From: a virus
DNA length: 37,485 nucleotides
Virus record (IMG/VR): IMGVR_UViG_3300005513_000323
Span: 1-37,485 of that record
Reading direction: 5' to 3' (one strand)
A program made the position numbers and the translations under genes. The notes beneath the pieces are model-generated. The model had not been told where the DNA came from. It saw only the letters and a program-made list of their open reading frames with translations, and searched no databases. How positions within the stretch are numbered: the stretch's first letter is position 1; each line of letters opens with the position of its first letter. Positions 7,207 through 29,175 of the stretch are shown piece after piece.

Positions 7207-7215
7207 GAGGTTCCA

Positions 7216-9135
7216 GTGCCGACGATCGACGGTATCCAGCTCGACAACCCGGCCTTCGGGTGGTCGCATCGGGCGACGTCGGAACCGATTCCCTCCTACG
7301 AGAGCGATCTGTCGACCCTGAAGCGAGCAGGCCGCGACGGTGTTGTGTCCTACCCGGGCGACACCGCCGCGGTCCTGCTGCGCATCGTGGTCCAGACCCC
7401 GTTCGCGAACCTGGAGTCTCTGAAAGCGCTGTTCAAGCAGGGTAAGGTCTGGGGAAACCGGGGCCGCGAGTCGGCCTACGAGTTCAAGTCGGACGGGGCC
7501 GTGGGATACGGTCCCGCCGATGGGCTGGTCGATGCAACGTTCGTGATCCGTCTCCCAGGCGCATTCATGCGCCCCAGCGCGAGTGAGACGACACCTCTCG
7601 CCCTCACCTCCGCGACGCACACCCTCTCGTGCTTCGGCGCGCGCCCGGTGGGTCTCGTTTCGCAGTGGCAGAACCTCTCCATCTCCTCGGGGTTCGAAGC
7701 CCCGGGATCGTCGGTAGAGGTACGGCGGAACTTCTGGCAGGACCCGAACTTCACGACCACATCGGCCGCTTTGTACGGCCAGACCGGTGGTACTGGGACG
7801 GCCGCAGTGTCGGGCGGCCGCATGGTGTGCACGAGCACGGGCGCAAGTGCGGTGCGGCTCGGCGTGGTGCACACGCTCGCGAACGTGAAGCCAGCGGGCA
7901 CGTACTACTTCGGAGTCGACGTGAAGTCGAGCTCCGGCAACCTGCAGGGCGCCCGCATATACCTGTACGACTCAGCAACCGCGACGATCCGGGCGACAGT
8001 GAACTTCGCGGCGCCGACGACAGAGACGCGCATCGAGGTGACCGCAACCGCCACAGGCGTGTTCGATCGGATCTATCTCGAGTTCTACGGAACAGCGATC
8101 GCGTCGGGCGACAGCGGGACGTTCTACCGCCCCTACCTCTCGAACATGCCCGGAGCGTTCATAGGGGGCACCACGCAGGCCGTGCCGGACGCGGACCTTA
8201 CCGCGGCATTCAGCGGCACGGTCAACGCTTCCGAGACGGTGCTCTCGGGCACCGGCGTCGTGGGGATCGCGTCGAGCATGGGCGTCGCCATGATCCGCTC
8301 GTCGTTCTCGTGGCCTGGGCGGCAGGGGGCCTACTCGCTGCGCCAGATACCAACGAGCACGACCAACAACGTCTCGTATGCGTCGCTCACGATCCCGGCG
8401 GCGGCGATCGGCGGGACGCTGATCGTCACAGGGCATCAGGAAGCGGCGCTCACGGGGTCGCTCTGGGTTCTGCGAGGCCGCGTCTATACGAACCCGGCCG
8501 GCTCGGGGAACGCCTCCCCGCAGATGCCGAACGCGGCTGGCACGCAGGAGCATCGTGTGGCGATCAGCGCCGCGCAGGCGGGATTCATCCTTCCTCACGG
8601 AGGGCTCGCCGGATCCGGTGATGTCTGGTGGGACCTCGTGATGGTCACCGCGACGCCGAACTACACCGGCCCAGCCTTCACCGGCTCGACGACTCCGCCA
8701 GATCGGCTCTCCACAATCGTGTGGGACGGCCTGCCGGATCAGTCGTCATCGACGTGGACGACCTACGCATCCTGGGACGGCGGCCTCTCCGCCCCGGTTC
8801 AGGATGCGGTCCTGCGGATGAAGGGCCCGGCAACCGGGATCCAGATCACGGATTCGTCTGGGGCGTGGGTGGTCCTGCCGGACACCCCGGCAGGAACCTG
8901 GACTCGGTTCGAGGCCGACACGGGGCGCTGCTTCCAGACGACCACGGACACGTGGTCGGGCGGCACCGAGGTCTCGGGGTCGTGCGACTTCGGCGGCCCG
9001 CGCGGTGTGTTCGAGATCACGCCGGTCATGGCACCGGGTGATCCGGGATCCCGCAGCGGCCAGCTCACGGTCGCGACCGTCACACGCACGGGTGCGGTGT
9101 TCGAGGTGCGCGGAAAGGCCGCGTACCTGCTCTAG
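7216..9135 (+). CDS. distal tail protein with carbohydrate-binding-like insertions
   Basis: 639 residues from GTG 7216 after TAGGAGG. Residues 1-145 look like a distal tail (Dit-like) protein, with IDGIQLDNPAFGW, then SYPGDTAAVLLRIVV, then FVIRLPGAFMRPSA. Next comes a jelly-roll-like region (about 170-310: GTYYFGVDVKSSSG, ARIYLYDSAT). Further beta-rich segments with many Trp and Ser follow, resembling carbohydrate-binding modules. At more than twice the size of a minimal Dit it resembles evolved Dit proteins that add host-surface binding modules. Position after the tape measure supports the call. Confidence 0.75.
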   Translation: MPTIDGIQLDNPAFGWSHRATSEPIPSYESDLSTLKRAGRDGVVSYPGDTAAVLLRIVVQTPFANLESLKALFKQGKVWGNRGRESAYEFKSDGAVGYGPADGLVDATFVIRLPGAFMRPSASETTPLALTSATHTLSCFGARPVGLVSQWQNLSISSGFEAPGSSVEVRRNFWQDPNFTTTSAALYGQTGGTGTAAVSGGRMVCTSTGASAVRLGVVHTLANVKPAGTYYFGVDVKSSSGNLQGARIYLYDSATATIRATVNFAAPTTETRIEVTATATGVFDRIYLEFYGTAIASGDSGTFYRPYLSNMPGAFIGGTTQAVPDADLTAAFSGTVNASETVLSGTGVVGIASSMGVAMIRSSFSWPGRQGAYSLRQIPTSTTNNVSYASLTIPAAAIGGTLIVTGHQEAALTGSLWVLRGRVYTNPAGSGNASPQMPNAAGTQEHRVAISAAQAGFILPHGGLAGSGDVWWDLVMVTATPNYTGPAFTGSTTPPDRLSTIVWDGLPDQSSSTWTTYASWDGGLSAPVQDAVLRMKGPATGIQITDSSGAWVVLPDTPAGTWTRFEADTGRCFQTTTDTWSGGTEVSGSCDFGGPRGVFEITPVMAPGDPGSRSGQLTVATVTRTGAVFEVRGKAAYLL

Positions 9136-9149
9136 AAGGGTGGTCACCG

Positions 9150-12059
9150 ATGTACGACATTCGGCTGCGCCGGTACTCGGACTCGGGGACCATTAGGGGT
9201 GCCGTGCTCCCCGCGCTCGACATCGACGCGACAGACGCCGAGTCGGCCACGGGCCGCCTCACGTTCACCACGACCGCGAAGACCGCAGGACGGCTTCCTG
9301 CCCCGTTCGTCGTCGGTCTCGAGGAGAACACCGGGGAGAAGTTCTGGACCCGACCGCGCAACGACCTGTTCATCGTCCTGGAGGACGCTGAGGACGCTGC
9401 GGATCAGACGGACATGATGCGGTTCACCGCTCAGTCGTACGTCGGGTGGCTGCTCTCGCAGGCGCTGCAGTGGTGGGCCGCGTTCAACACCGCGGACGGC
9501 AAGACCCGAGTGTTCAAGGCCACGCCGGGCTACATCCTGAAGACCTGGATCGATGAGGCGCACGGGAACGTCCCGGGCGGCTCGACGCCGCGCGGGTGGG
9601 CGCCCTCGCTGACCTACGACTTCAACGCGATGGTGGACTCGTTCGGCGCCGGCTGGCAGCCAGAGGACACGATCGAGGGCAAGTTCGAGATGTGGCGCTC
9701 GTACGCCTCGTTCATCCAGACCTGGGTGGACACGGGGAAGTTCGAGTGGTGGGCCGAGGGCATGAAGATGCGCATCGCGCGTGTCGGCACCGGCATCGAC
9801 CGCATGGGAAGCGTCGTCCTCGGCGGGCCCGCGTTCAGCGCGGCACCGGCCAAGACGTCGTTCGCGGACGTGTTCTCCACTCTCGTGCTGCTGCCAGAGA
9901 ACAACGCGGCCACGCACCGCTACAACGCGGGCGCCGACACCCGCTTCGGCGCGCTGGAACGGTCGATGTCGTTCAGCGGCGTCTCGTCCTGGGACGATGC
10001 CGTGCAGCAGGCGCAGCCTGCGATGACCGAGGGTCGCGCGAAGAAGCTCGAGCTGTCGTTCGACTGGACGCCCGCCGCGGGAGGCCCGGTGCCCGGCCGC
10101 GACTTCGACATCGGCGACACGGTCACCGCACGCCGCAAGTCGGGCAAGGTGCCGCAGCGCGTCATCGGGATCCAGCGCTCGAAGCGCGCCGGTGAGCTCG
10201 CGACAGTTCGGGCGATCGTCGGCGACAAGCTCGTAGGGCTGCAGGCGAAGATCGCGAAGCGCACCGCCGCGATCTCCACCGGCACGATCATCGGCGGATC
10301 CGGTACCGCGTTCCCGTCGAACCCGGGCCAGGCTCCGCTCACCCCGGCCGCGCCGACGGCGCTGCGCGTGGGCTCGAACGTCGGCTCGTGGCGGGCGGAC
10401 GGATCCGCTGTCGCGACCGTGACGCTCGCGTGGGATGCCGTGACGACCGACGTGAACGGGAACCGTCTCGATTGCGACCTTTACGAGATCGACTCTCGCC
10501 TCGGATCCGGGACGCCCCAGTCACTCACGACGACGAGCGCCCTGACCGCGACGACGACCGTCTGGGAGTCGGGCACGCCGCGCTACGTGCGCGTACGGGT
10601 GCGCTCCGTCGGCGGGGCCTGGTCGGCGTGGTCCGGGGAGATCTCGGTGACGCCGGCGACCGCGTCGTCGATCGTCCCGAAGGCCCCGACCGGGCAGACG
10701 GTGGCGTCGAACACGGCCGCGTTCCAGGCCGACGGCAGCGCTCTCGCGACCGTCGTCGTGACGTGGACGCCGGTGACGCAATCCGTCGACGGCCTGCCCG
10801 TGGCGATCGCCGAGTACGAGGTCACGATCGGCGCCGACAAGGTCCGCACGACAGCCGCGACGCTCACGTTCTACCTCCCGACCGGGAAGACGGTCGACGT
10901 CACGGTGCGGGCGCTCACGACCCTCAAGGTCTGGGGCGACCCGTCCGCGGCGCTGAACGTCGGCGGCGCGAACCCGACCCTCTCGACGGCCGTGCCGACC
11001 ACGCCCGCGCTGACTGCGGGCATGGGCGGGATCTCCGTCGTCTGGGATGGGCGGTTCGTCGGGAACACTCCGCCGCCTGCTGGGTGGGCTTCGACGCTCA
11101 TCGAGGTCGCGACCGCGAGCAGCGGCCCGTGGTCCGCGCTCGGCGCGCCGCTCTCGGCCGCCGGCGGAACCACGATCGCTGTCCCGGCCGGATCCGCCCG
11201 TTGGGTGCGGTTCGTCGCTCTCGACAGCCTCGCCCGCCGCGGCGGGGTCTCAGCGAGCGCGAGCGCGACCGCGACCGGTGTCCCGCTGGGGCAGCTCGAC
11301 CAGGCCGTCATCGACGCGATCAGCAAGGCGCAGACCACCGCCGACGGGAAGAACCGGATCTACGCGCAGACCGCGCAGCCGGCGCCCGTCCCGCCCGCAC
11401 CGTCCCTGGCAGCGGGCGATCAGTGGTGGGTGCTCGACGGCGCCGGCACGTCGATCGTCGGTGTGAAGGTCTGGAACGGGACGACCTGGGTGCCGTACCT
11501 GCTCCTCGCTGACCAGATCATCGCGGCCGGGTCGATCACGTCCCCGCTCATCAAGGCGGGGCAGATCCTCGTCGATCACATCGGCCCGAACGTCGGATCG
11601 CAGCTGAACCTCGGCGGAAACGGCGCACTGGTCCAGATCGGCGGGCAGCTCGCGCAGCAGACCGCGGACCTCGCGGCGACGAACCAGGCCGTCCAGAGCG
11701 CGCAGGCCACCGCGGACGCCGCCGGCTCGGCGGCTTCCACCGCGCAGGGCACGGCGACATCGGCGGTGACGCAGGTCTCCGCGACGGATGCGCTCGCCCG
11801 CGCGACGGCCGCCGCGCTGACCGCGCACAAGTCGATCTTCCAGGTGACGAGCGACGGCGCGCAGCTCATCACCCCGGACGGGTCGAACGCGCTGCGACTA
11901 ACCCCGGCCGGGATCGCGATCCTGCAGAACGGCGTCGCGCAGACGACGTGGAACGCGGGCGTGATGGTCGTCCCCAACCTGGTCGCCGACGCGGCCAGCA
12001 TCGCCGGACTGAAGTTCGAGAAGTCCGGCACTCGCACGCTGCTCCGGCAGCTCACATAG
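9150..12059 (+). CDS. Gp37-like minor tail protein with fibronectin-like domains
   Basis: 969 residues from ATG 9150 after AGAAGGGTGG. Residues 1-370 match the Siphovirus ReqiPepy6 Gp37-like type: a beta-rich start, many Trp (LQWWAAFN, FEWWAEGMKMRIARVG) and a late GRDFDIGDTVTARR. Three fibronectin-III-like repeats follow at about 397-502, 509-604 and 612-710. Then comes a fibre-type segment (DQWWVLDG, then GTTWVPYLLLADQI, about 755-800) and an Ala/Gln/Thr coiled coil (about 830-890). It is probably a tail-hub/baseplate protein replacing the tail-associated lysin, extended by spacer domains. Confidence 0.75.
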   Translation: MYDIRLRRYSDSGTIRGAVLPALDIDATDAESATGRLTFTTTAKTAGRLPAPFVVGLEENTGEKFWTRPRNDLFIVLEDAEDAADQTDMMRFTAQSYVGWLLSQALQWWAAFNTADGKTRVFKATPGYILKTWIDEAHGNVPGGSTPRGWAPSLTYDFNAMVDSFGAGWQPEDTIEGKFEMWRSYASFIQTWVDTGKFEWWAEGMKMRIARVGTGIDRMGSVVLGGPAFSAAPAKTSFADVFSTLVLLPENNAATHRYNAGADTRFGALERSMSFSGVSSWDDAVQQAQPAMTEGRAKKLELSFDWTPAAGGPVPGRDFDIGDTVTARRKSGKVPQRVIGIQRSKRAGELATVRAIVGDKLVGLQAKIAKRTAAISTGTIIGGSGTAFPSNPGQAPLTPAAPTALRVGSNVGSWRADGSAVATVTLAWDAVTTDVNGNRLDCDLYEIDSRLGSGTPQSLTTTSALTATTTVWESGTPRYVRVRVRSVGGAWSAWSGEISVTPATASSIVPKAPTGQTVASNTAAFQADGSALATVVVTWTPVTQSVDGLPVAIAEYEVTIGADKVRTTAATLTFYLPTGKTVDVTVRALTTLKVWGDPSAALNVGGANPTLSTAVPTTPALTAGMGGISVVWDGRFVGNTPPPAGWASTLIEVATASSGPWSALGAPLSAAGGTTIAVPAGSARWVRFVALDSLARRGGVSASASATATGVPLGQLDQAVIDAISKAQTTADGKNRIYAQTAQPAPVPPAPSLAAGDQWWVLDGAGTSIVGVKVWNGTTWVPYLLLADQIIAAGSITSPLIKAGQILVDHIGPNVGSQLNLGGNGALVQIGGQLAQQTADLAATNQAVQSAQATADAAGSAASTAQGTATSAVTQVSATDALARATAAALTAHKSIFQVTSDGAQLITPDGSNALRLTPAGIAILQNGVAQTTWNAGVMVVPNLVADAASIAGLKFEKSGTRTLLRQLT

Positions 12060-12075
12060 ACAGGAGGGCCGGTTC

Positions 12076-13968
12076 GTGACGAACTCCTCGAACTTCCCGA
12101 ATCGGCCCTTCCGTCTCGAGATCCGCACGTGGGTGAACTGGCAGGACGTCCCCTCGAACCGCGACTCGATCCACTCCGAGCTGTGGATCATCAAGAACGC
12201 GTACTCGCCGTCGTTCTCCAACGCGACGTCCTCGTTCGATCACTGGGCCAACGGCGGCCGGGTGAACTCCGGCACGTTCACGTTCGACTTCACGTCCACC
12301 GACGCGCTGCGGATCTCGTCGACGGACTTCCTCGTCGTGCACGACGCCGACGGGAGCAAGACGTTCGAGACCGCCGGGTTCGTGAACGCCGACGTACTCG
12401 GCTACACCCAGGTGAACGAGTGGATCACCCCGCCCACGATCCCGCGCGCCACCATCGGCACGTTCGCCGGCGGATCCGCATTCGACTCGGGCGCCGCGGT
12501 GACGATCAACCTGCCCCGTGCGTCGTCCGCCTTCACGCACGTGATCGACGCAGCGTTCGGCACCCGCCGGGTGACGATCGCCTCGGGCGTCGGCACGTCC
12601 TACGTGTGGACCCCAGATCTCGCGTGGCTGGATCAGATCCCGAACGCCACCTCGGGCGTCGGCGAGATCATCGTCGGCACCTACAACGGCAGCGACCCGA
12701 ACGCGATCGGCTACCAGCGCACCGGGTTCACGCTCCGCGCGCCCGCCTCGGCGGTCCCGACGATCAGCGCGGTCACGGTCCAGGACAACAACCCGGACGT
12801 GGCGTCGAAGATCGGCAAGCTCGTGCAGGGCCTGTCCGCGGCGATCGTGACCGTCACCGCCGCCGGCGTCTACGGCTCCACGATCACGCAGAAGTCCGCG
12901 ACCGTGGGAACCGTCGCCGGCGCCGAAGGCACGCCGATCCCGATCACTGTGTCCGGCTCGGTCTCCGTCGTCGGCGTCGCCACCGATTCCCGAGGCCGCA
13001 CTGCGACCTCGGCGGGTACGATCCCCGTGCTCGCATACGATGTCCCGAAGATCCTCACCGCGCCGACCGCACAGCGGTGCAGCTCCGGCGGCGCACCCGC
13101 CGACAACGGCACGTTCCTGCGCGTCGACCTGAACGCCTCCGTGAGCTCGCTCGTGAACGGGACCGAGAAGAACGCGCTCACCGTGACCGTGCAGACCCGC
13201 GAGCACGGCACCGGCCCGTGGACGAACCGCAACGTGCTCACCCCCGGCCTGGCCTACAACGGGTTCTTCGTCGTGACCGGCGGCGGCATCTTCGACGTCG
13301 CGAAGTCCTGGGACGTGCGGATCCTCGTCGCCGACGTGTTCCAGACCGCGATCCAGGATCTCGTCGTCGGCACCGAGCGCGTGATCGCTGACTTCGGTCC
13401 CGGCGGCATGGGCATCAACAAGCGGTACACGCAGGGCGGACTCGACGTCGCCGGCGACATCTTCACGGACGGCGAGCTCCGCCACCGCGGCAACTTCCCG
13501 GTCGAGCCCGTCGGCGTGATCCACATGTTCGCCGGAGCCACGGCACCTGCAGGGTTCCTGATCTGCGACGGATCGCCGGTGTCGCGCACGACGTACGCGG
13601 CGCTGTTCACTGCGATCGGCACGCTCTACGGCGTCGGCAACGGGACGAGCACGTTCAACCTGCCCGACTTCCGCGGCCGCGGCGCGATGGGCAAGGACGC
13701 GACGACCGACTTCGACACGCTCGGCAAGACCGGCGGCGAGAAGAAGCACACCCAAACCGTCGCCGAGATGCCCAAGCACGGCCACTCGCTCGACATGAAC
13801 ACCGCCGGATACACCGGCGGTGCCGCGGGCAACATCCACTTCGGCAACGGTGCGGCCACGCACCCGGCGTACTTCACCGGTGGCGCGAACTCGCTGACCG
13901 GTGGCGACACCCCGTTCAACGTCCTCGACCCGTACGTGACCGTCAACTTCATCATCAAGGCCCAGTAG
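12076..13968 (+). CDS. tail fibre / receptor-binding protein with collar domain
   Basis: 630 residues from GTG 12076 with a CAGGAGGG site. Residues 1-460 are beta-rich, resembling DUF859-type siphovirus minor structural proteins (SELWIIKNAYSPSFS, ITPPTIPRATIG). Residues about 477-535 are a phage tail collar domain: PVGVIHMFAGATAPAGFLIC, then a conserved Tyr-Gly-Gly-Asn stretch, then FNLPDFRGR. The remaining Gly/His/Asn-rich end (KHGHSLDMNTAG, ending in FIIKAQ) is typical of receptor-binding tips in this family. It is the last large structural gene, so it probably recognises the host surface. Confidence 0.85.
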   Translation: MTNSSNFPNRPFRLEIRTWVNWQDVPSNRDSIHSELWIIKNAYSPSFSNATSSFDHWANGGRVNSGTFTFDFTSTDALRISSTDFLVVHDADGSKTFETAGFVNADVLGYTQVNEWITPPTIPRATIGTFAGGSAFDSGAAVTINLPRASSAFTHVIDAAFGTRRVTIASGVGTSYVWTPDLAWLDQIPNATSGVGEIIVGTYNGSDPNAIGYQRTGFTLRAPASAVPTISAVTVQDNNPDVASKIGKLVQGLSAAIVTVTAAGVYGSTITQKSATVGTVAGAEGTPIPITVSGSVSVVGVATDSRGRTATSAGTIPVLAYDVPKILTAPTAQRCSSGGAPADNGTFLRVDLNASVSSLVNGTEKNALTVTVQTREHGTGPWTNRNVLTPGLAYNGFFVVTGGGIFDVAKSWDVRILVADVFQTAIQDLVVGTERVIADFGPGGMGINKRYTQGGLDVAGDIFTDGELRHRGNFPVEPVGVIHMFAGATAPAGFLICDGSPVSRTTYAALFTAIGTLYGVGNGTSTFNLPDFRGRGAMGKDATTDFDTLGKTGGEKKHTQTVAEMPKHGHSLDMNTAGYTGGAAGNIHFGNGAATHPAYFTGGANSLTGGDTPFNVLDPYVTVNFIIKAQ

Positions 13969-13976
13969 GAGGACCC

Positions 13977-14285
13977 ATGGCAACGACCACGCAGCACATC
14001 GCCGCCCGCAACGACCCGGACCTGCTCGACCGGTTCATCGCCGCCGCCGAGCAAGCCGGCGTCGAGGACGCATCGCGCATCGTCCAGACGAACATGGGCA
14101 AGCTCGTCACGCAGCCGGTCGGCGACGGCCAGGTCATCGCGGACGTGCACGCCTTCGCCGCCAACGCGCGCGAGGAGTACATCGCCGCGACTCCGGAGCG
14201 CGCGGGTGCGAACCTCGCAGCGGTGACCGATGCTCAACTCGCGTCGGCGATCGCCGCTATCCTGCCTCCGGAGGTGTCCGCATGA
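13977..14285 (+). CDS. small phage protein after the tail fibre, unknown
   Basis: 102 residues from ATG 13977 after TAGGAGGACC, eight bases after the fibre stop. It is Ala-rich and helical (LDRFIAAAEQAGVEDASRIV) and has no signal or membrane segment. It overlaps the next gene by ATGA, so it is part of the same late operon. Small downstream partners of tail fibres can be fibre assembly factors or minor fibre subunits, but nothing in the sequence shows this. Function not recognised. Confidence 0.7.
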   Translation: MATTTQHIAARNDPDLLDRFIAAAEQAGVEDASRIVQTNMGKLVTQPVGDGQVIADVHAFAANAREEYIAATPERAGANLAAVTDAQLASAIAAILPPEVSA

Positions 14286-14503
14286 CCGCATACATCGTGA
14301 AGGCGACCAGTGCGGACGGTCTGTCCGGCGAGGTCTTCGAGGTCGACGCCGTCGACGAGGACGCCGCGCGCGCCGCCTACGTCGCCTGGGCTGAGCGCGA
14401 GTACGCGGCCCCCTTCATGGGACCGACCCGGCTCCCCGACGGCTCGAACACACCCGCGCTCGGCGGCGCGTTCCCCATCATCACGGTCACTCGAATGGAC
14501 TGA
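14282..14503 (+). CDS. small phage protein, unknown
   Basis: 73 residues from ATG 14282, overlapping the upstream stop (ATGA). The start MTAYIVKATSADGLSGEVFE and the middle DEDAARAAYVAWAE look like a small alpha/beta fold. It is the last rightward gene before the reverse-strand insert, and the expected operon terminator only appears 700 bp further on. No recognisable domain. Confidence 0.65.
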   Translation: MTAYIVKATSADGLSGEVFEVDAVDEDAARAAYVAWAEREYAAPFMGPTRLPDGSNTPALGGAFPIITVTRMD

Positions 14504-14523
14504 TCGCACCGCCCGTTCGAGCG

Positions 14524-15192
14524 CTACACCATCGTTTGCTTGGTCTTCTTGCGTCGCAGTTCCCTCGCGACGCCCGCGTCCTGGAATGTCGGGCGAATAC
14601 TTCGCGGCGCACGGCGTACTGGCTCGTTCTCGAACCGCTGCCACCAACGACCGGCAGCGTCACGGAACACGATCCGGCCCTGGATATGCGCCGCCGTGGG
14701 ACCCCACCTGTGCTCGAGCATGAACTTCACAGTGTGTGCGGAGCCCGGCGGGATCCGCACGATTCTCTCAGCCGCCCCGTCGATCAGAGCCTGATCGAGT
14801 CCGCTGACCACTTCGAAGACCATCGGCCCGACGGCCTCATCGCTGTTGTTCGCGATGGTCATCGTGGCGATGATCGCCGGCCGAGGAGACTTACCCCATC
14901 CGCCAGTCTTCTCGTCCTCGTTGACCTCGATGCCAACGATCGACGCGCCTTGGTGAAGGAAGAATGGCTGGCCGGCCTCGTACAAGGCGATGTCTGCCTC
15001 ACCAATGACTACCTTGCGAGCCTGTGCTTTCCGGCCGTCCATGACGCTCCACACGTAGCCGAAGGCCGCGAGTCCCAGGGCCCCTACGGTCCCGATCGCT
15101 GCGACCCAGTCAGGCACTGAGCCCCAGTTGAACGCCTGCCACCAGTGGCCGAGGTCTACACACATGGCCGAATCGTATCGGTCGCACTCCAT
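14524..15192 (-). CDS. reverse-strand membrane-anchored protein, likely prophage moron
   Basis: Up to 222 residues. The first possible start is ATG 15192 and the next in frame is ATG 15165 (MCVDLGHWW); neither has a clear ribosome site. One membrane segment lies at about 29-50 (DWVAAIGTVGALGLAAFGYV), then a charged stop-transfer stretch and a soluble beta-rich domain (FFLHQGASIVGIEVNED, MTIANNSDEAVGP, SAHTVKFMLEHRWGP). The VPDWVAAIGTVGAL-type start occurs in hypothetical actinobacterial membrane proteins. It is the only leftward gene in the late region, has visibly lower GC than its neighbours, and lies between the last tail gene and the terminator at 15199. This fits an independently expressed lysogenic gene, for instance superinfection exclusion. 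Function unknown. Confidence 0.75.
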   Translation of the reverse strand: MECDRYDSAMCVDLGHWWQAFNWGSVPDWVAAIGTVGALGLAAFGYVWSVMDGRKAQARKVVIGEADIALYEAGQPFFLHQGASIVGIEVNEDEKTGGWGKSPRPAIIATMTIANNSDEAVGPMVFEVVSGLDQALIDGAAERIVRIPPGSAHTVKFMLEHRWGPTAAHIQGRIVFRDAAGRWWQRFENEPVRRAPRSIRPTFQDAGVARELRRKKTKQTMV

Positions 15193-15198
15193 ATCGAT

Positions 15199-15219
15199 GG
15201 CCCCCGCTCGGCGGGGGCC
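15199..15219 (+). terminator. Rho-independent-like terminator before the endolysin
   Basis: Arms GGCCCCCGC (15199-15207) and GCGGGGGCC (15211-15219) pair perfectly around a TCG loop and are followed by TTCGTCGTT in the rightward direction. It fits the end of the tail operon. It also overlaps the upstream region of the reverse-strand gene, and the endolysin ribosome site follows directly. Confidence 0.75.
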
Positions 15220-15245
15220 TTCGTCGTTCCCGAAAGGACACTTTC

Positions 15246-16955
15246 ATGGCCTACGTCACCCCCGCCGACGTCGGAGTCTCCGACAACTGGCAGGACCACA
15301 TGAACCGATCCAGCGCCGAGCCCGGCACCGACTACGGCACCGCGTACGGCACGAACCTGCGCGCGCCGGAGTCGGGCGTGGTGATCGGCGTCGACCGCGA
15401 TCCCGGCGGCCCCGCCGGTCGGCGGCTCACGCTGCTGCTCGACGACGGCCGCGTGGTCGACTGGATCCACCTCTCCGAGATCTGGGTGAACGTCGGCGAC
15501 CGCTTCTCGCGCGGACAGACCGGTCTCGCGCTGTCCGGCGCGTCCCGCTACGGCGTGAACTGGCCCGACGACATGGGGCCTCACGTGCATGTAACGCTGC
15601 GCGCCGATCGAGGGCGGCCATTCGCCGACACCCTCAACTTCGAGGACTACGTGGGCGGCGGATCCGGCGGCTGGTCCGACCAGGATAAGCAGGACTTCCT
15701 CGACTCGCTCGGCTACGACACTGGCGCGCCCGGCTGGGGCGCGAAGTGCGAGGCCGCGACGAACGACCTGCAGAGCAAGACTGGCCTGAAGCCCGACGGC
15801 GACTTCGGCCCCGCAACGAACGGCGTCGCCCAGACGATCAAGGCGGGGCGTAACGACACGAGCCGCCCGACCCGGGAGATCCAGACCGCGCTGAAGGCGG
15901 CAAAGTTCGACCCCGGCGCGATCGACGACAGCTGGGGCAACAAGACCAGCTTCGCCGAGTACCGGTGGCAGCTCTCCGCCGGCCTCACCGCGGACGCGAT
16001 CCACGGCCCCGCCTCCGACGCGCGCATGTTCCCCGCCACGCCGACCCTGGCCGCGCACCAGCGCCAGGCGGACGGCGATGGCGTGAAGGGCCGCACCGAC
16101 GCGACCAAGTCCGCAGCGCAGATCGCGTTCCTGGACCCGAACGACGTCGGCGACTTCGACGGCTGGAAGCGCGGCGAGAAGGTCGACGGCGAGGATCGCT
16201 GGGTGCGCGGCGCGCACACCGGCGCGTGGTTCTGGCTCGGCGGCCTCTCCCCCCGCACGGTCGACGGACTCACCGAGGTGAAGGCTGGAACGACCCCGGT
16301 GACGCCGGTCCCCGCGACGCCGAAGTTCCCGCAGCCGACCGCGCCCACCTACCCCGGCGCGACACGTTGCGCGCACTCGCCGTCATCGGAGCCGCGCAAC
16401 GGCCAGAAGGTGAAGTGGTTCATCGTCCACCACCGCGGCGACAAGAACCTCCCGAGCGCCGCGCAGTGGTGGGACGCGGACATGCGCGATCGGGGCGACC
16501 AGGGCGTCTCGCCGACATGGGCTGTGAGCTCTGACGGCTCGGTGGCCGAGATGGTCCCACCTGACGACTTCCGCCCGTGGGCGTCCGGCAAGGCCGACTT
16601 CAACGCGGTCGCCGTCGAGACGCAGAACACGAGTGGTGCACCTGCATGGGGGATCTCGGATGCCTCGCACGAGGCGATCGCGCAGCTCGCTGCGTGGTCC
16701 GCAAAGCGCTACGGCTTCCCGATCGACCGAGACCACGTCTTCGGTGACCGGGAGATCACGGCGAAGACCGGGATCCAGACGCGATCGACCGAGTGCCCGG
16801 GCCCGTCGATGGACCTTGACCGGATCGTGAAGCGCGCGCAGGAGATCGCCACGCCGAAGCCCGATCCCGAGCCGACGACGGATCTCTCGGGGATTGCGAA
16901 GTTGCTGCAGCAGATCCTCGACCTGCTCAAGCGGATCTTCGGAGGTGGGAAGTGA
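15246..16955 (+). CDS. modular endolysin: M23-like peptidase plus Amidase_2
   Basis: 569 residues from ATG 15246, with GAAAGGA upstream. Residues 10-130 resemble an M23 endopeptidase, with EPGTDYGTAYGTNLRAPESG near residue 25 and the HxH metal motif at His113/His115. Residues about 155-310 are a linker/peptidoglycan-binding-like part (LKPDGDFGPATNG). Residues about 385-535 are an Amidase_2 (N-acetylmuramoyl-L-alanine amidase) domain: WFIVHHRGD with His395/396, DHVFGDREIT with His497, and ECPG with Cys517, the usual zinc ligands. A short amphipathic helix ends the protein. It should cut both stem-peptide and glycan-peptide bonds of the wall at lysis. In the M23-like part Glu25 sits where the first zinc His is usual. 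Confidence 0.88.
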   Translation: MAYVTPADVGVSDNWQDHMNRSSAEPGTDYGTAYGTNLRAPESGVVIGVDRDPGGPAGRRLTLLLDDGRVVDWIHLSEIWVNVGDRFSRGQTGLALSGASRYGVNWPDDMGPHVHVTLRADRGRPFADTLNFEDYVGGGSGGWSDQDKQDFLDSLGYDTGAPGWGAKCEAATNDLQSKTGLKPDGDFGPATNGVAQTIKAGRNDTSRPTREIQTALKAAKFDPGAIDDSWGNKTSFAEYRWQLSAGLTADAIHGPASDARMFPATPTLAAHQRQADGDGVKGRTDATKSAAQIAFLDPNDVGDFDGWKRGEKVDGEDRWVRGAHTGAWFWLGGLSPRTVDGLTEVKAGTTPVTPVPATPKFPQPTAPTYPGATRCAHSPSSEPRNGQKVKWFIVHHRGDKNLPSAAQWWDADMRDRGDQGVSPTWAVSSDGSVAEMVPPDDFRPWASGKADFNAVAVETQNTSGAPAWGISDASHEAIAQLAAWSAKRYGFPIDRDHVFGDREITAKTGIQTRSTECPGPSMDLDRIVKRAQEIATPKPDPEPTTDLSGIAKLLQQILDLLKRIFGGGK

Positions 16956-17119
16956 ACGAGACCGACTGGGCACGCTCGCGCCCGTCGAACATCCAGCACG
17001 CCGAGAAGCGTCCGCATCCCATGCGTCCTGTGGATGCTGTGTGGATCAGCATCGGCGTGATCCTCGTCGCAGGCGCGGTCGTCTTCGGCGCGATTCGGAT
17101 GCTCGGGTGGAGCGCATGA
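16952..17119 (+). CDS. 55-residue single-span membrane protein in the lysis cassette
   Basis: Starts at GTG 16952, overlapping the endolysin TGA, with GGAGGTGGGA immediately upstream. It ends at TGA 17117-17119 and overlaps the next ATG. The N-terminal 27 residues are polar and basic, and one hydrophobic segment follows (VWISIGVILVAGAVVFGAIR). The overlap pattern, strong ribosome site and membrane span make it a real gene. It may be a holin partner or antiholin. No family recognised. Confidence 0.75.
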   Translation: MNETDWARSRPSNIQHAEKRPHPMRPVDAVWISIGVILVAGAVVFGAIRMLGWSA

Positions 17120-17622
17120 CCCACACCGGCCCTGCCCGCACTGTCCGGCGCGGGCGGGGCTGGTGGTGGGTCGCGGCAGCAGCTCTCGGCGTGCTGATCG
17201 TGTGCGTCGGCATCATCGTCGCCGGCGCGATGAACGACGGCGACGGTTCTCCACTCGTCGAGAACCCGGGCGCCGTCCTGGTCGGATTCTTCGCACTCGT
17301 CAGCGGTCTCGGATCCGCGCTCATCGGCAAGCTCTCCGGCCCACTCTCTGACATCGGCGACGTGAAGGAGAACGTGCAGAACGACCACACGAAACCGGAC
17401 GGCACGCCCCTGAACCTCCGAGACGACCTCGACGAGAAGCACGACACCGTGCTCGAAGCATTCGCGCAGTTCCAGGCCGAGATGAAGAACGAGTTCGCGG
17501 CGGTACGCCTCGACATCGGCGGACTCCGGAAAGAGAACCGCGACGACCGCGACGACGCGAACGACCGCATCAGCGACCTCGCCACGCGCGTCCGACACAT
17601 CGAACAGAAAGGCACATCATGA
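17116..17622 (+). CDS. two-span membrane protein, DUF2746-like
   Basis: 168 residues from ATG 17116, overlapping the upstream stop (ATGA). The frame extends further left, but that stretch overlaps the endolysin and the 55-residue gene. Two membrane segments are seen: about 18-38 (WWVAAAALGVLIVCVGIIVA) and about 50-72 (GAVLVGFFALVSGLGSALIG). A charged coiled-coil tail follows, with GTPLNLRDDLDEKHD and then FAAVRLDIGGLRKENRDDRD. The layout and the NLRDDLDE motif resemble DUF2746-type proteins of actinophage lysis cassettes. It may help control holin action. Confidence 0.7.
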   Translation: MTHTGPARTVRRGRGWWWVAAAALGVLIVCVGIIVAGAMNDGDGSPLVENPGAVLVGFFALVSGLGSALIGKLSGPLSDIGDVKENVQNDHTKPDGTPLNLRDDLDEKHDTVLEAFAQFQAEMKNEFAAVRLDIGGLRKENRDDRDDANDRISDLATRVRHIEQKGTS

Positions 17623-18002
17623 ACCGCATCTGGTTCCCGTCGCAGCGCGCCATCCGGACCGCGCTGCAGGTCATCCTCGGGGCGATCGCCATCCTCGGCA
17701 TCGTCGTGAGCGTCGCTCCGCAGGTGCTCGACGCTGTGGCCGACGTGCTGCCGGGACCTGCGGTCGCGTGGCTCGCTGGCGCGATTGCCACGCTCGCGGG
17801 CGTGAGTGCCGCGATCTCCCGGGTCATGGCCATCCCCGCGATCGACGAGTGGCTCCGCAAGTTCGGCGCCGGTTCCGCGCCCGCCGGCGCGATCACCTAC
17901 ACGCCGCTCAACGGTGACGCGATCGGCCTCACCCGACGCCAGTACCGCGCGATGGCGGACGGCGCCGACACCGGCGAGAAGACGACCGTCGCCGACCGCT
18001 GA
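17619..18002 (+). CDS. putative holin
   Basis: 127 residues from ATG 17619, overlapping the previous stop (ATGA), with a GAAAGG site. Two hydrophobic helices occupy about 14-38 (ALQVILGAIAILGIVVSVAP) and 45-70 (GPAVAWLAGAIATLAGVSAA), followed by a basic/polar cytoplasmic tail. Two closely spaced helices, small size and the last place in the lysis cassette match class II-like holins, which permeabilise the membrane so the endolysin can reach the wall. The terminator follows within 20 bases. Confidence 0.75.
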   Translation: MNRIWFPSQRAIRTALQVILGAIAILGIVVSVAPQVLDAVADVLPGPAVAWLAGAIATLAGVSAAISRVMAIPAIDEWLRKFGAGSAPAGAITYTPLNGDAIGLTRRQYRAMADGADTGEKTTVADR

Positions 18003-18055: not shown

Positions 18056-18330
18056 TTCGTCGTTCGTGGGCACAGGTCGCAGGGGAGGCGGTATCTCATC
18101 TCGGCAACCGAGGCCCTTCCGGCCCTCTCCTCTGCGGAGGGTTTCTCGGCGTGGGCATCAGCCCGTCGCTGGGCGGTCTCCTCTTCGTCCCGATACGCGG
18201 ACGAATCACCTACCGATGGAGAAGCACATGATCGACATAATGAACCAACTCGACGCCGACCAGATCGACGTCCTGCTCAAGGTGGGCCGCTGGCTCGGCT
18301 GGGCCGCGCTCAAACTCGCCGCACGGACAG
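18056..18330. other. probable right end of the prophage (att region, position not resolved)
   Basis: Phage late genes end with the terminator at 18019-18055. From 18310 onward the genes look chromosomal. Between them lie a small non-coding stretch with a short hairpin (CCTC/GAGG around 18129-18140) and the start of a small rightward frame that runs into the 3' end of a leftward chromosomal gene. A phage crossover inside or next to the 3' end of that gene would explain this. I cannot see the other copy of the core sequence because the left prophage end is outside the window. Confidence 0.4.
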
Positions 18331-18545
18331 CAGCTGATAGCCCTCGGGGATCTTCGCCTCGAGCGCTACCATGTCGTCGGCTTCGATCTCGGTCACGCCG
18401 TCACGGCGCGCGATCGTGCCCTCGGCGGTCATCATCGTGTCCTTCTTCGACATCGACACGGGTGCGGACACCGTCTCCCAGCCGGCGGGTGACTGCTCGC
18501 GGATCAGGTCCTGGATCTCGTCGAGTTCCTCGGCCTGCACGGTGA
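18228..18545 (+). pseudogene. small phage-type frame, probably interrupted at the prophage end
   Basis: ATG 18228 has a good GGAG site. The first 35 or so codons look coding (MIDIMNQLDADQIDVLLKVG, then WLGWAALKLAAR). After about 18330 the frame turns into Ser/Arg/Pro-rich antisense of the leftward gene 18310-18585. I read this as a phage gene whose natural 3' end was exchanged at the attachment site. It could also be chance. Confidence 0.35.
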
Positions 18546-18585
18546 TGGTGCGCGTCTCGCGCGGGCGGATCATTCCAATGAGCAC
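18310..18585 (-). CDS. conserved small chromosomal protein, unknown
   Basis: 91 residues, from GTG 18585 (second start ATG 18573); neither start has a strong ribosome site. The start carries RPRETRTITVQAEELDEIQD. The C-terminal half has SKKDTMMTAEGTIARRDGVT and then EIEADDMVALEAKIPEGYQL. It is rich in Glu with no membrane segment. The codon pattern is coding on this strand, and the rightward frame opposite is not. Its 3' end is the candidate integration site of the prophage. No family recognised. Confidence 0.65.
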   Translation of the reverse strand: MLIGMIRPRETRTITVQAEELDEIQDLIREQSPAGWETVSAPVSMSKKDTMMTAEGTIARRDGVTEIEADDMVALEAKIPEGYQLLSVRRV

Positions 18586-21204: not shown

Positions 21205-21663
21205 TCAGCTGCCTAATGCGAGATGGAGAATCGGGTAGGGGCGGCCGTCGCCGTCGAGTTCACTTCGCCCCGTCTGCACGAAACCGCGGCTTAGATAGAA
21301 GCCGTGCGCGCCGGAGTTCTGTTCGTTGACGTCCACACGGGTGACCGCGAAGTGCTCGATCACGTGCTGGAGGAGAAGCGTGCCCACACCCGTGCCCCGC
21401 GCCTCGTCGGCGACGAACAGCATCTCCAGGGCCCCTTCCGCCACCCCGGCGAAGCCGACCGCACGGCCTTCGCGCTCGGCGACCACGAGCCTCACGGCGG
21501 GGAAGTAGACGGAGGCGAGGTTGCTCTCGATACGAGCGAAGTCCTCTTCCGCGAGGAAGCCGTGCGTTGCACGAACGGCACTGCGCCAGATCTCCACCAG
21601 CCGGGGGTACTCCGCGGCACCGCGCGCGGGACGGACGACGGCTGAAGTCGGATCGATGGACAC
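21205..21663 (-). CDS. GNAT-family N-acetyltransferase
   Basis: 152 residues from GTG 21663 with AGGA eight bases upstream. It has the GNAT layout: an N-terminal strand-helix (AAEYPRLVEIWRSAVRATHG), a central VGFAGVAEGALEMLFVAD strand pair, the acetyl-CoA loop ARGTGVGTLLLQHVIEHF, and late VDVNEQNSGAHGFYLSRGF. It fits the YjaB/small-molecule acetyltransferase type. It is the last gene of the leftward group headed by the SOS box at 23049, about 40 bp after the SRAP gene. It could be co-transcribed or have its own promoter. Substrate unknown. Confidence 0.85.
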   Translation of the reverse strand: MSIDPTSAVVRPARGAAEYPRLVEIWRSAVRATHGFLAEEDFARIESNLASVYFPAVRLVVAEREGRAVGFAGVAEGALEMLFVADEARGTGVGTLLLQHVIEHFAVTRVDVNEQNSGAHGFYLSRGFVQTGRSELDGDGRPYPILHLALGS

Positions 21664-21703
21664 CCAGCGATCCTGCCATTGGTCACTCAGGATGGCGAAA
21701 CCG

Positions 21704-22396
21704 TCAGATGGCCGGCTCGATGACGGTCGGGTCGTCGCGGTCGACGGTGCGGGTGTTGTTGACCTTCCGGTCGACGACGTACTGCTCGATCGTGGAGGCG
21801 ATCGCTGTGGAGGATCCGTCGAGGAGGGCGAGCATGTTCTCCCGGCCGGGACGGTCGAGCTTGACCGGTTCGAGCCAGGCGTCCGTGGCGTCGGGGGTGA
21901 GGAACGCGGGCATGCGGTCGTGTACCTCGCCTCCGGCGTCGCGCGCTTCGCGGGTGACGACGACGAAGCAACGGGTCTGCTCGCCGCGCACGTCCATCGA
22001 CCAGGTGAGGCCAGCGGCGGCCAGCAGCCCGTCGCCGTGGAGGTAGTGCGGGATCTTCGCGCCCTTCTCGCCGGTCCATTCGAAGTAGCCGCGCATCGGG
22101 ACGACGCAGCGCGCCGCGGTGAACGCGGGCGCCCAGAACCCGGCCGCGAGCTTCTCGACACGGGCGTTGATGAGCGGAGCACCGGGGCGCATGTTCTTCG
22201 GCTTCTCCCAGTCCCACCGCACGAGCTCGAGGAACCGGCCCTCGCCGCGGTCGCGGATGATCGGCGCCGGGTCGGTGGGAGCGATCGAGTACGAGCCGTG
22301 CCATTCCTTCCACCAGTCCTGGGGGTCGCCGCCGCCGGCGACGAACTCTTGGATCAGCTCGTCGGTCTTGGCGTCCATCGCGAATCGTCCGCACAT
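21704..22396 (-). CDS. SRAP/HMCES-family DNA-damage protein (YedK-like)
   Basis: 230 residues. I choose ATG 22396 because it places Cys2 next to the initiator Met (MCGRF), as the family needs after Met removal. Conserved parts: CGRFAMD, YSIAPTDPAP, LINARVEK, a GYFEWT motif with the catalytic Glu, and VHDRMPAFL with the catalytic His. The family forms a thiazolidine crosslink between Cys2 and abasic sites in single-stranded DNA, shielding them during replication. It is third in the leftward operon behind a LexA-type box, consistent with damage induction. Confidence 0.92.
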   Translation of the reverse strand: MCGRFAMDAKTDELIQEFVAGGGDPQDWWKEWHGSYSIAPTDPAPIIRDRGEGRFLELVRWDWEKPKNMRPGAPLINARVEKLAAGFWAPAFTAARCVVPMRGYFEWTGEKGAKIPHYLHGDGLLAAAGLTWSMDVRGEQTRCFVVVTREARDAGGEVHDRMPAFLTPDATDAWLEPVKLDRPGRENMLALLDGSSTAIASTIEQYVVDRKVNNTRTVDRDDPTVIEPAI

Positions 22397-22406
22397 GGCC
22401 GCCACC

Positions 22407-22745
22407 CTACGCCCGACGACCGACAGCCGGCGCGGTGGTCGTGCCGGCTTCGTCGGGGAGGGTGACGGCGTTGCCCCACACCCAGCACCGGAACGTCTTG
22501 TCGCGGATCGTGAACGAGACGCCGGCGGCGTCGGAGGTCGTGCGGTGGATCCAGCAGTCGACGTGCATCGGGATCGCGCCGAACCGGATCCACGCCTTCG
22601 CGCGGATCGGGTTCGGGTAGATCGTCACCGGGGTCTCGTCGAGTCGCAGTTCCTTCTCAGTGAGGGACTGCAGCGCGTTCTCGCGCGCGATCTTCAGCAG
22701 GAAGTGATCGGCGGCCGCGTCGGCTTCACGCTGGCTCGTGCCCAT
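22407..22745 (-). CDS. unknown protein in the SRAP operon, SOS-linked
   Basis: 112 residues from ATG 22745, five bases after the stop of the preceding gene and ten bases before the SRAP start. The N-terminus is helical (READAAADHFLLKIARENAL). A beta-rich domain follows with ITIYP-like strands, KAWIRFGAIPMHVDCWIHRT and FRCWVWGNAV. It has no membrane segment or signal. Tight packing between the LexA box and SRAP suggests a role in damage tolerance, but no family is recognised. Confidence 0.8.
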   Translation of the reverse strand: MGTSQREADAAADHFLLKIARENALQSLTEKELRLDETPVTIYPNPIRAKAWIRFGAIPMHVDCWIHRTTSDAAGVSFTIRDKTFRCWVWGNAVTLPDEAGTTTAPAVGRRA

Positions 22746-22750
22746 TCAGA

Positions 22751-23029
22751 TCAGAACCCGTCGCGCGCGACCGACGCCGAGATCGCGGCTCTCTCCTCCG
22801 CGTCGCGGCGGATCTCGTCACGGCACCAGTTCTCCGCGGCGAGCAGCCCGTCGTGCACGGTCAACACGTGACGTCTCTTCGGATCCGGCGCCCACCACTC
22901 GACGCGGTGCTTCACCATCGTCTCGCCCGTCTCACGCAGCACGAGCGGTCCCTCCACGATGAGGAATCGGGCGTGGTAGCGGTTGTCCACCACGAGCCAC
23001 TGCGCGCGGGCGAGCGGGATCACGTGCAC
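22751..23029 (-). CDS. unknown first gene of the SOS-box operon
   Basis: 92 residues from GTG 23029 (MHVIPLARAQWLVVDNRYHA). It is basic and Trp-rich with strands around FLIVEGPLVLRE and HRVEWWAPDPKRRHVLTV, ending in an acidic/basic helix. The start lies 20 bp from the SOS box at 23049-23064, so this is the promoter-proximal gene of the leftward operon. The composition could suit nucleic-acid binding, but no motif is diagnostic. Not recognised. Confidence 0.75.
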   Translation of the reverse strand: MHVIPLARAQWLVVDNRYHARFLIVEGPLVLRETGETMVKHRVEWWAPDPKRRHVLTVHDGLLAAENWCRDEIRRDAEERAAISASVARDGF

Positions 23030-23048
23030 GATCGCACTCTAGCCGTAT

Positions 23049-23064
23049 TCGAATGTGTGTTCCA
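23049..23064 (-). promoter_or_regulatory. candidate LexA (SOS) box
   Basis: TCGAATGTGTGTTCCA matches the actinobacterial/Gram-positive box TCGAAC-N4-GTTCGA at ten of twelve conserved bases, with mismatches at the sixth base of the left half and the fifth of the right half. It lies directly upstream of the leftward operon ending in SRAP and GNAT, where a LexA site controlling damage-inducible genes would be expected. Confidence 0.7.
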
Positions 23065-23138
23065 TGGTGTTAACCCATGAGCCTGCGAACAGTCGAAAAG
23101 CCCGTGGGGGCAGCGGGTACGGCACACGAAGTAGCGGA

Positions 23139-24674: not shown

Positions 24675-24689
24675 CACCCCGAAGCCCAA

Positions 24690-27723: not shown

Positions 27724-29175
27724 ATGGCACTCATCCCCGCAGCGAGCTACGCCCGCATCTCCCAGAAGGTCGAGCGCGACAAGGTAGCCGACCAGCATGC
27801 ACAGAATGCTCGTCACGCGAAGGCCCGGGGCTACCAAATCGTGGCGAAGTTCACTGACGACGGCATTACAGGCCTCGGGCACAAGGAACGTCCCGGATTC
27901 GAGGCAATGCTCTCAGCGGCCGACCGCGGCGCCTTCCAGGTGATCATCGCCACTGAGGAGGAGCGCCTAGCGCGCAATGTCGAGGAGAAGCTAGAGCTGC
28001 ACGCTGCATGCGAGGACTTCAAGATTGTGTTCGACACGATCCGTGACGGGTATGTCGACCCCTCCACCGACTCGGGTGAATTCATGTCCACGATCCGTGC
28101 TGCGGTCGGCAAGATCGAGTCGAAGCGGAAAGCCCGCCGACAGCGGGACACTTCCGATGAGCGAGCGGCAGAGGGGCAGCCCACCGCTCGGCCTGGCTAT
28201 GGCTATCGGCGTGAGGATGGGCGTGATGTGGTCTTCGAAGCAGAGGCCGCAGTCATACGTGAGACCGCTCGCCGTGTACTCGATGGGGAGTCCCTACGGT
28301 CGGTTGCCGCAGACCTGAACCAGCGGGGCATCCCTTCGCCACGCACGAGGGAGCTCGCCCGCAAGGCGCAGCGCGAGGAAGTGGAGCCTCCCCCGCCGAT
28401 CCCCTGGCAGGGCATCACCTTGCGCCAGCTCATCCGCCGCCCATCGCTCGCAGGACTCCGTACCCATCGAGGCAAAGTCGTCGGCAAATTCGACCCCGAC
28501 AAGCACCCTGCGATCCTCAATGAGGACACTCACACCCGGTTGGAGGCGCTGCTCACGGACCCGAGCCGAGCGCAGGGCACGGGTGGCCGCACCCCGGTTC
28601 ACCTACTGTCGGGGTTGGCCGTGTGCGGTCGATGCGGCGGGCGAATGAAACGGATACCAGGGTGGGCGCCGAAGCCGGGGCAGGAATCCAAGGCAGTAAA
28701 GGCCGCGTACTCGTGCGGCGACTGCCACAAGGTGCGTCGCATCCAAGAGTCGGTGGACGAGTTCGTGACGGAGGTTATCCTTCGCCGCCTCGAACAGCCC
28801 GACGCTGCATCGCTGTTCCGTCAGGGCGATGAGGGTGCCGCACAGCAAGCCCGTGACGCTATCGATGTCATCGACGCCCGACTCGCCACCGCCGCCGATC
28901 AGTTTGCCGAGGGTGTCCTGACCGGCGACCAGCTACGCCGCATCACCGAACGTCTACGGGCCGACCGTGGCGCGCACGAACGCATTGTGGCGGATTCGAT
29001 GCCCGCTCGCGTGCCCGTCGGCGTACTGGGGCCTCTAGCACGCCAGACCTGGGCCGGACTACACATCGACAGCCGACGCGCCATCATCAACGCCCTGGCC
29101 GCGGTGATCATCGAGCCGCAAGGTAGCGGACGATCATTCGATCCTGACCTCATCCGCATCGTGTGGCGCGCGTAA
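27724..29175 (+). CDS. large serine recombinase (integrase)
   Basis: 483 residues from ATG 27724. Residues 5-150 are the resolvase catalytic domain: SYARISQKVERD with nucleophile Ser13, a DGITG segment, and IIATEEERLARN. Residues about 165-275 are the recombinase DNA-binding domain (RPGYGYRR, LRSVAADLNQRGIPSPR, ITLRQLIRRPSLAGLR). Residues 295-345 are a zinc ribbon with Cys301, Cys304, Cys331 and Cys334, followed by a coiled coil and a C-terminal helical part. Length and domain order match phage- and ICE-type large serine integrases that recombine attP with attB in one direction. It lies at the left end of the element and follows a broken tad gene. Confidence 0.93.
   Translation: MALIPAASYARISQKVERDKVADQHAQNARHAKARGYQIVAKFTDDGITGLGHKERPGFEAMLSAADRGAFQVIIATEEERLARNVEEKLELHAACEDFKIVFDTIRDGYVDPSTDSGEFMSTIRAAVGKIESKRKARRQRDTSDERAAEGQPTARPGYGYRREDGRDVVFEAEAAVIRETARRVLDGESLRSVAADLNQRGIPSPRTRELARKAQREEVEPPPPIPWQGITLRQLIRRPSLAGLRTHRGKVVGKFDPDKHPAILNEDTHTRLEALLTDPSRAQGTGGRTPVHLLSGLAVCGRCGGRMKRIPGWAPKPGQESKAVKAAYSCGDCHKVRRIQESVDEFVTEVILRRLEQPDAASLFRQGDEGAAQQARDAIDVIDARLATAADQFAEGVLTGDQLRRITERLRADRGAHERIVADSMPARVPVGVLGPLARQTWAGLHIDSRRAIINALAAVIIEPQGSGRSFDPDLIRIVWRA

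What the first reader, a model, noticed from the sequence alone, without database searches (positions are those of the whole stretch)
21205..23064. LexA-box operon linking SRAP/HMCES to two unknown proteins
TCGAATGTGTGTTCCA lies 20 bp before the first gene. Two unknown proteins (92 and 112 residues) precede an SRAP protein with Cys2, Asn, Glu and His all conserved, and a GNAT follows. Spacing is 5, 10 and about 40 bp, so a common SOS transcript is likely. The two small proteins are candidate new partners in abasic-site protection.
Basis: partly seen in the sequence, partly recalled or inferred. Interest (0 to 1): 0.65.

Follow-up and report, generated by a model that had tools for sequence, protein, structure and literature searches.

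The report
Phage DNA-damage-switched SRAP gene cassette
A temperate phage of Microbacterium carries a small set of genes, including one that should cap damaged DNA, behind a switch that the cell's DNA-damage response very probably controls; tracing the switch through relatives led to an unstudied small-protein gene that carries the same switch in almost every Microbacteriaceae copy examined.

Summary
In detail: a LexA-like box at 23049-23064, then on the minus strand p92, p112 (both without known family), SRAP and a GNAT, with spacings of 5, 10 and 40 bp. In the window alone the box is not significant; comparison makes it so. The window is part of a Microbacterium temperate phage. Close relatives keep the box in a divergent promoter whose other gene is an 86-aa protein, p86; the window retains only its first ten codons. 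Of 70 Microbacterium p86 genes, 64 have a LexA box 20-45 bp upstream (0.25 expected), scored with a matrix made from host recA boxes only; in other Microbacteriaceae genomes it is 39 of 40. The gene across the box is usually p112-family. p86 resembles DUF6504 (best E 1.8e-4). So the conserved unit is p86 <- LexA box -> p112; p92 and SRAP are additions in some phages and islands. p112 directly precedes an accessory-clade SRAP in about ten loci, never a housekeeping SRAP (0 of 28), but most p112 and about half the p92 loci lack SRAP. The GNAT is not conserved. SOS control is well supported; partnership of p92 or p112 in abasic-site protection is not shown. No wet-lab evidence exists.

The parts
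23049..23064 (.). LexA (SOS) box TCGAATgtgtGTTCCA; on the minus strand TGGAACacacATTCGA, 19 bp before p92 and 12 bp before the p86 stub
   Evidence: 2 mismatches to TCGAACN4GTTCGA; score 16.4 with a matrix built only from host recA boxes, background 0.02 per kb at this score; conserved in L002, L016, L017, L019
23036..23041 (-). probable -10 element TAGAGT of the p92 operon; the transcript would start about at the GTG (leaderless)
   Evidence: read by eye, conserved as TAGAGT/TATAGT in the five p86|p92 promoters; the consensus scan finds no sigma-70 site
22751..23029 (-). p92: 92-aa protein of no known family, first gene of the operon
   Evidence: 8 of 296 Microbacterium genomes; alignment A2; low-confidence model: beta hairpins plus a C-terminal helix
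22407..22745 (-). p112: 112-aa protein of no known family, N-terminal helix and a 4-strand beta domain
   Evidence: homologues across the LexA box from p86 in most p86 loci and upstream of SRAP in about ten loci
21704..22396 (-). SRAP (HMCES/YedK-type) protein, Met-Cys start, accessory clade
   Evidence: PF02586 8.6e-41; catalytic residues kept; clade apart from chromosomal SRAPs, support 100/100
21205..21663 (-). GNAT acetyltransferase, downstream, probably not part of the conserved cassette
   Evidence: PF13673; no homologue in any other related locus then held
23077..23106 (+). remnant of the divergent gene p86: start codon and ten codons, then no homology
   Evidence: DNA nearly identical to L002 from 23030 up to 23106, where similarity stops; tblastn 90% over residues 1-10 and nothing else in the window
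18310..18582 (-). p91: small protein of no known family that recurs just downstream of accessory SRAPs
   Evidence: homologues beside SRAP in L016, L017, L052-L054, L103-L113 and others
3661..18002 (+). phage tail (tape measure), endolysin and holin-like genes that show the window is phage
   Evidence: PHROGs and Pfam hits; the genome source is a virus record
27724..29175 (+). serine integrase, so the phage is temperate
   Evidence: phrog_95 integrase 3e-74, Resolvase and Recombinase domains

Best explanation
A LexA-controlled accessory operon (p92-p112-SRAP) of a Microbacterium temperate phage, derived from an older divergent SOS unit p86 <- LexA box -> p112. Proposed working: in the lysogen the host's LexA binds the box, which overlaps both promoters, and keeps p92, p112 and SRAP off. 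DNA damage loads RecA on single strands, LexA cleaves itself, and the operon is transcribed. SRAP uses Cys2 to cross-link abasic sites in single-stranded DNA and so protects host or phage DNA while repair, or prophage replication, goes on. p112 (a small, perhaps SH3/Tudor-like beta domain) and p92 are made with it as small accessory proteins of the damage response. In this phage the partner gene p86 has been lost. Shown by sequence: box, gene order, conservation, intact SRAP active site, phage context, p86 stub. Inferred: LexA binding, one transcript, SRAP activity. Guess only: what p92, p112 and p86 do.
For: Box at one position in 5/5 p86|p92 promoters and 64/70 Microbacterium p86 promoters against 0.25 expected, scored by a matrix made only from host recA boxes. 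39/40 p86 homologues in other Microbacteriaceae genomes have near-perfect boxes. The palindromic pattern TCGAA-N6-TTCGA occurs at only 6-8 places per genome; in G003 one is the p86|p92 promoter and another lies just upstream of recA. All six genomes tested encode LexA and RecA. SRAP active-site residues kept. p112 directly before SRAP in L052, L053, L109, L113, L117-L120, L128 and the window, in scattered parts of the SRAP tree. Published actinobacterial LexA motif tCGAAC-N4-GNNCGa (PMC9380542).
Against: The window's own box is one of the weaker ones (16.4 against 22-28 for recA). Most accessory SRAPs (about 40 of 58) have neither p112 nor a box nearby, so SOS control is not a general property of this SRAP clade. 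In L017 an insert of about 2.3 kb separates p112 from SRAP, so one transcript is not conserved everywhere. No expression or binding data.
Confidence: 0.8

Rival explanations
1. p92 and p112 are dedicated partners of SRAP in abasic-site protection.
For: p112 lies 10 to about 45 bp before SRAP in about ten loci, with at least three forced changes on the SRAP tree, so the pairing recurs or persists; p92 with SRAP in window, L002, L016, L017, L018.
Against: Most p112 loci pair with p86 and lack SRAP; p92 is without SRAP in L019-L023; 40 of 58 accessory SRAPs have no p112 within 5 kb.
Confidence: 0.15
2. The cassette is phage cargo that blunts host defence or helps the phage at induction: SRAP shields phage single strands from nucleolytic attack at abasic sites; p92, p112, p91 and p86 are other accessory genes of the lysis-integration arm, gathered there by recombination rather than by function.
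For: Genes lie beside lysis genes at the prophage end in L002, L051-L054, L273-L287 with very variable neighbours; DNA glycosylases that make abasic sites can act as phage defence (PMC11078745, listed).
Against: p86-p112 units also lie on chromosomes with no phage genes in sight, and p86 is kept with its box across the family, which argues for a cellular role of that pair.
Confidence: 0.25
3. The palindrome is an operator of a phage repressor, not of host LexA.
For: It is phage-borne and sits in a divergent promoter, as phage operators often do.
Against: It matches host recA boxes and is found at chromosomal p86 genes with no phage nearby, 39 of 40 genes outside Microbacterium.
Confidence: 0.04

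Closest known systems
SOS-associated SRAP operons (Aravind, Anand and Iyer 2013, PMC3765255)
   Same: SRAP linked to SOS control, presence of SRAP in temperate phages, small unknown neighbours
   Different: Known operons pair SRAP with umuCD, imuAB-dnaE2, dinB, Ku or ligase; none of these is here, and p92, p112 and p86 are not mentioned in the passages read
YedK / HMCES (solved, e.g. 6kcq, 2icu, 6nuh)
   Same: Full-length homology, Cys2, Asn, Glu and His kept
   Different: Only distantly related to YedK; belongs to a Microbacterium accessory clade apart from the housekeeping copies
DUF6504 (PF20114)
   Same: p86 homologues match it nearly end to end, best E 1.8e-4
   Different: Weak match, 3 of 22 members, and the one whose score is printed is far below the cut-off; p86 is a stand-alone gene of about 86-96 aa. 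That DUF6504 genes lie next to imuB-dnaE2 is my recollection, not tested
LexA regulon of actinobacteria (Streptomyces venezuelae, PMC9380542)
   Same: Same 16-bp palindrome
   Different: No DUF term occurs in the text of that paper; whether a p86 relative is among its targets was not tested

Membership tests
LexA (SOS) regulon | Promoter box matching the host LexA motif | tested here: met
   recA-derived matrix, score 16.4; 64/70 related Microbacterium promoters and 39/40 in other genera
LexA (SOS) regulon | Box overlaps the promoter | tested here: inconclusive
   -10-like elements on both sides read by eye and conserved; consensus scan finds none
LexA (SOS) regulon | LexA binding and induction by DNA damage | not testable with these tools
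   needs EMSA/ChIP and RNA-seq
SRAP / HMCES (PF02586) | Domain match above the curated cut-off | tested here: met
   140 bits against 27.1
SRAP / HMCES (PF02586) | Cys2 after Met, catalytic Asn, Glu, His | tested here: met
   alignment with YedK entries 6kcq, 2icu
SRAP / HMCES (PF02586) | Covalent capture of abasic sites in ssDNA | not testable with these tools
   biochemistry needed
DUF6504 (p86) | Match above the Pfam gathering score | tested here: inconclusive
   best E 1.8e-4, 3/22 members; first member 13.2 bits against 24.2
Tudor / SH3-like barrel (p112) | Clear structural match to the fold | tested here: inconclusive
   model pLDDT 76.6; list dominated by Tudor, PWWP and integrase C-terminal barrels but best Z 5.7 and no Foldseek E below 0.001

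The most novel reading that the evidence does not exclude
p86 (DUF6504-like) is an unrecognised LexA-regulated gene kept across Microbacteriaceae, and with p112 forms a two-protein SOS unit read in both directions from one LexA box; temperate Microbacterium phages have taken up the unit and joined SRAP and p92 to it, so that host damage signalling drives a phage-carried DNA-protection set.
Probability: 0.45. Interest if true: 0.75.

Novelty: new variant of a known kind. Interest (0 to 1): 0.56.

Why it matters
SRAP was tied to SOS by gene neighbourhood, usually beside mutagenic polymerases; here is a phage-borne SRAP under a conserved LexA box with different, uncharacterised companions, and a contrast group (housekeeping Microbacterium SRAPs without a box). 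The search also yields a testable new SOS gene family: p86 carries a near-perfect LexA box in almost every copy examined in the Microbacteriaceae, a bacterial family for which no paper in the held library combines LexA and SOS response.

Tried and rejected
GNAT as part of the system: no homologue in related loci. p92 and p112 in phage and plasmid records: p92 none in either, p112 none in phages. Single-protein viral scan with p112: no relative; with a relative as query: 17 loci. p92 as a tail protein (phrog_5577, E 8e-4, 19.9 bits): short weak match, not followed. Solved structures by sequence for p112, p92 and p86: nothing convincing. p92 fold: three sequences, pLDDT 68.7, matches meaningless. 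LexA box at housekeeping SRAPs: none convincing in 28 loci. Phage markers from this window and a few relatives detect only 7 of 52 accessory-SRAP loci and 7 of 61 p86 loci; that test sees only close relatives of these phages, so the share that is phage is unknown. Alignment A1 was too variable for a viral scan.

Full report
What is there. On the minus strand the window has p92 (23029-22751), p112 (22745-22407), SRAP (ATG 22396 to 21704) and a GNAT (21663-21205), with gaps of 5, 10 and 40 bp, and TCGAATgtgtGTTCCA at 23049-23064. SRAP is PF02586 and keeps Cys2, Asn, Glu and His when aligned with YedK. p92 and p112 match no Pfam or NCBIfam family. By itself the box is not significant in this window: 34 sites with up to 3 mismatches, 24.5 expected.

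Setting. The window is a virus record with a tape measure protein, endolysin, holin-like genes, primase and serine integrase; homologues are in Microbacterium. The operon lies in the accessory stretch between lysis genes and integrase.

The promoter is divergent and has lost a gene here. In L002, L016, L017 and L019 the same box sits between p92 and an 86-aa gene, p86, read the other way, always at -35 from p92 and -28 from p86. In the window, DNA similarity to L002 runs through the box into p86 and stops at 23106 after ten codons: p86 is a stub.

The box is a LexA box. recA loci in six Microbacterium genomes show a conserved box, TCGAAgacatgTTCGA or close variants. A matrix from those recA boxes alone gives 16-21 to the p86|p92 boxes. 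Sites of 16 or more occur at 0.02 per kb outside p86 promoters.

p86 is the constant part. p86 homologues occur in 99 of 367 Microbacterium genomes. Of 70 p86 genes with context, 64 have a box scoring 12 or more 20-45 bp upstream, against 0.25 expected, and in most of them a p112-family gene (p112 or the related p106) is on the other side. In a family-wide sample 182 of 400 genomes have a p86 homologue; of 40 such genes read from genomes outside the Microbacterium set, 39 have a box of 16 or more, most of them near-perfect palindromes such as TCGAACATATGTTCGA. Some of these loci are near-copies (L306-L309, L312), so independent cases are fewer, but the sequences and neighbourhoods are diverse. 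p86 homologues match DUF6504 nearly end to end, weakly (best E 1.8e-4). No paper in the held library contains 'DUF6504'.

Where SRAP fits. The Microbacterium SRAPs sampled form two fully supported groups: a housekeeping type (28 rows) and the accessory type to which the window belongs (58 rows). None of the 28 housekeeping loci has p112, p92 or p86 within 5 kb or a convincing box. In the accessory group p112 is directly next to SRAP in 11 rows, 10 of them upstream in the same direction (in L114 a p112 fragment is divergent), and a p112 or p106 is within 5 kb in 7 more, scattered over the tree (6 changes, at least 3 forced). Strong boxes upstream of SRAP are found only where p86, p92 or p112 is there (window, L002, L049, L134, L100, L113, L118). 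p92 is rarer: ten loci, five with SRAP, six with the box, one of these (L023) a contig with a relaxase-like gene where p92 faces a p112-like gene across TAGAACATATGTTCGA.

Mechanism. The best-supported account is host-LexA repression of a phage accessory operon whose SRAP would cap abasic sites after damage. LexA binding, co-transcription and SRAP activity are inferred from established knowledge of LexA and of YedK/HMCES. p112 is modelled as a helix plus four-strand beta domain whose best structural neighbours are Tudor/SH3-like barrels, but at Z 5.7, which the tool itself calls middling; an adaptor role is a guess. Nothing ties p92 to a function.

Against known systems. SOS-linked SRAP, and SRAP in temperate phages, are known (PMC3765255); so the SRAP part is a new member of a known kind. 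The companions and the divergent p86/p112 LexA unit were not found described, hence 'new variant of a known kind'.

Limits. All evidence is comparative sequence analysis. The search for phage genes around relatives used only markers close to this phage, so how many accessory SRAP or p86 loci are prophage is unknown. Starts of some small genes are by inspection. p92, p112, p86, p91 and p106 are names made for this report.

Noticed in passing
L033-L038 (lexA loci of six Microbacterium genomes): recA has a clear LexA box in all six genomes, but the lexA loci show none with up to two mismatches in a consistent promoter position; lexA autoregulation may use a diverged site or none.
   Followed up: no
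window 18310-18582 and homologues in L016, L017, L051-L054, L103-L113: A 91-aa protein (p91) of no known family recurs near accessory SRAPs and p112 genes; one weak hit to DUF4177.
   Followed up: partly
L023 (G050, 9-kb contig with a relaxase-like gene): A distant p92 and a p112-like gene face each other across a strong LexA box on a probable mobilizable element, outside any phage context.
   Followed up: partly
L049:5001-5258 and L134:5822-6079: Two near-identical p86 genes carry an in-frame stop at codon 43 while box and downstream SRAP stay intact.
   Followed up: no
L017 and L018 (G268): One genome holds two related elements near two glutamine synthetase genes; the second has a 5'-truncated p92 and an SRAP with a TGA stop.
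   Followed up: partly
window 23139-24689: A LuxR-type ORF lies where the rest of p86 would be; its codon usage looks unlike the other genes, so it may be recently acquired or decaying.
   Followed up: no
window 18815-20149: The phage accessory region carries a long transporter-like membrane ORF (it reads like an Nramp-type metal transporter, judged by eye, no family search run).
   Followed up: no
window 8851-8928: ARAGORN calls a tRNA-Val (cac) inside the tail-protein ORF 7216-9135; probably spurious.
   Followed up: no
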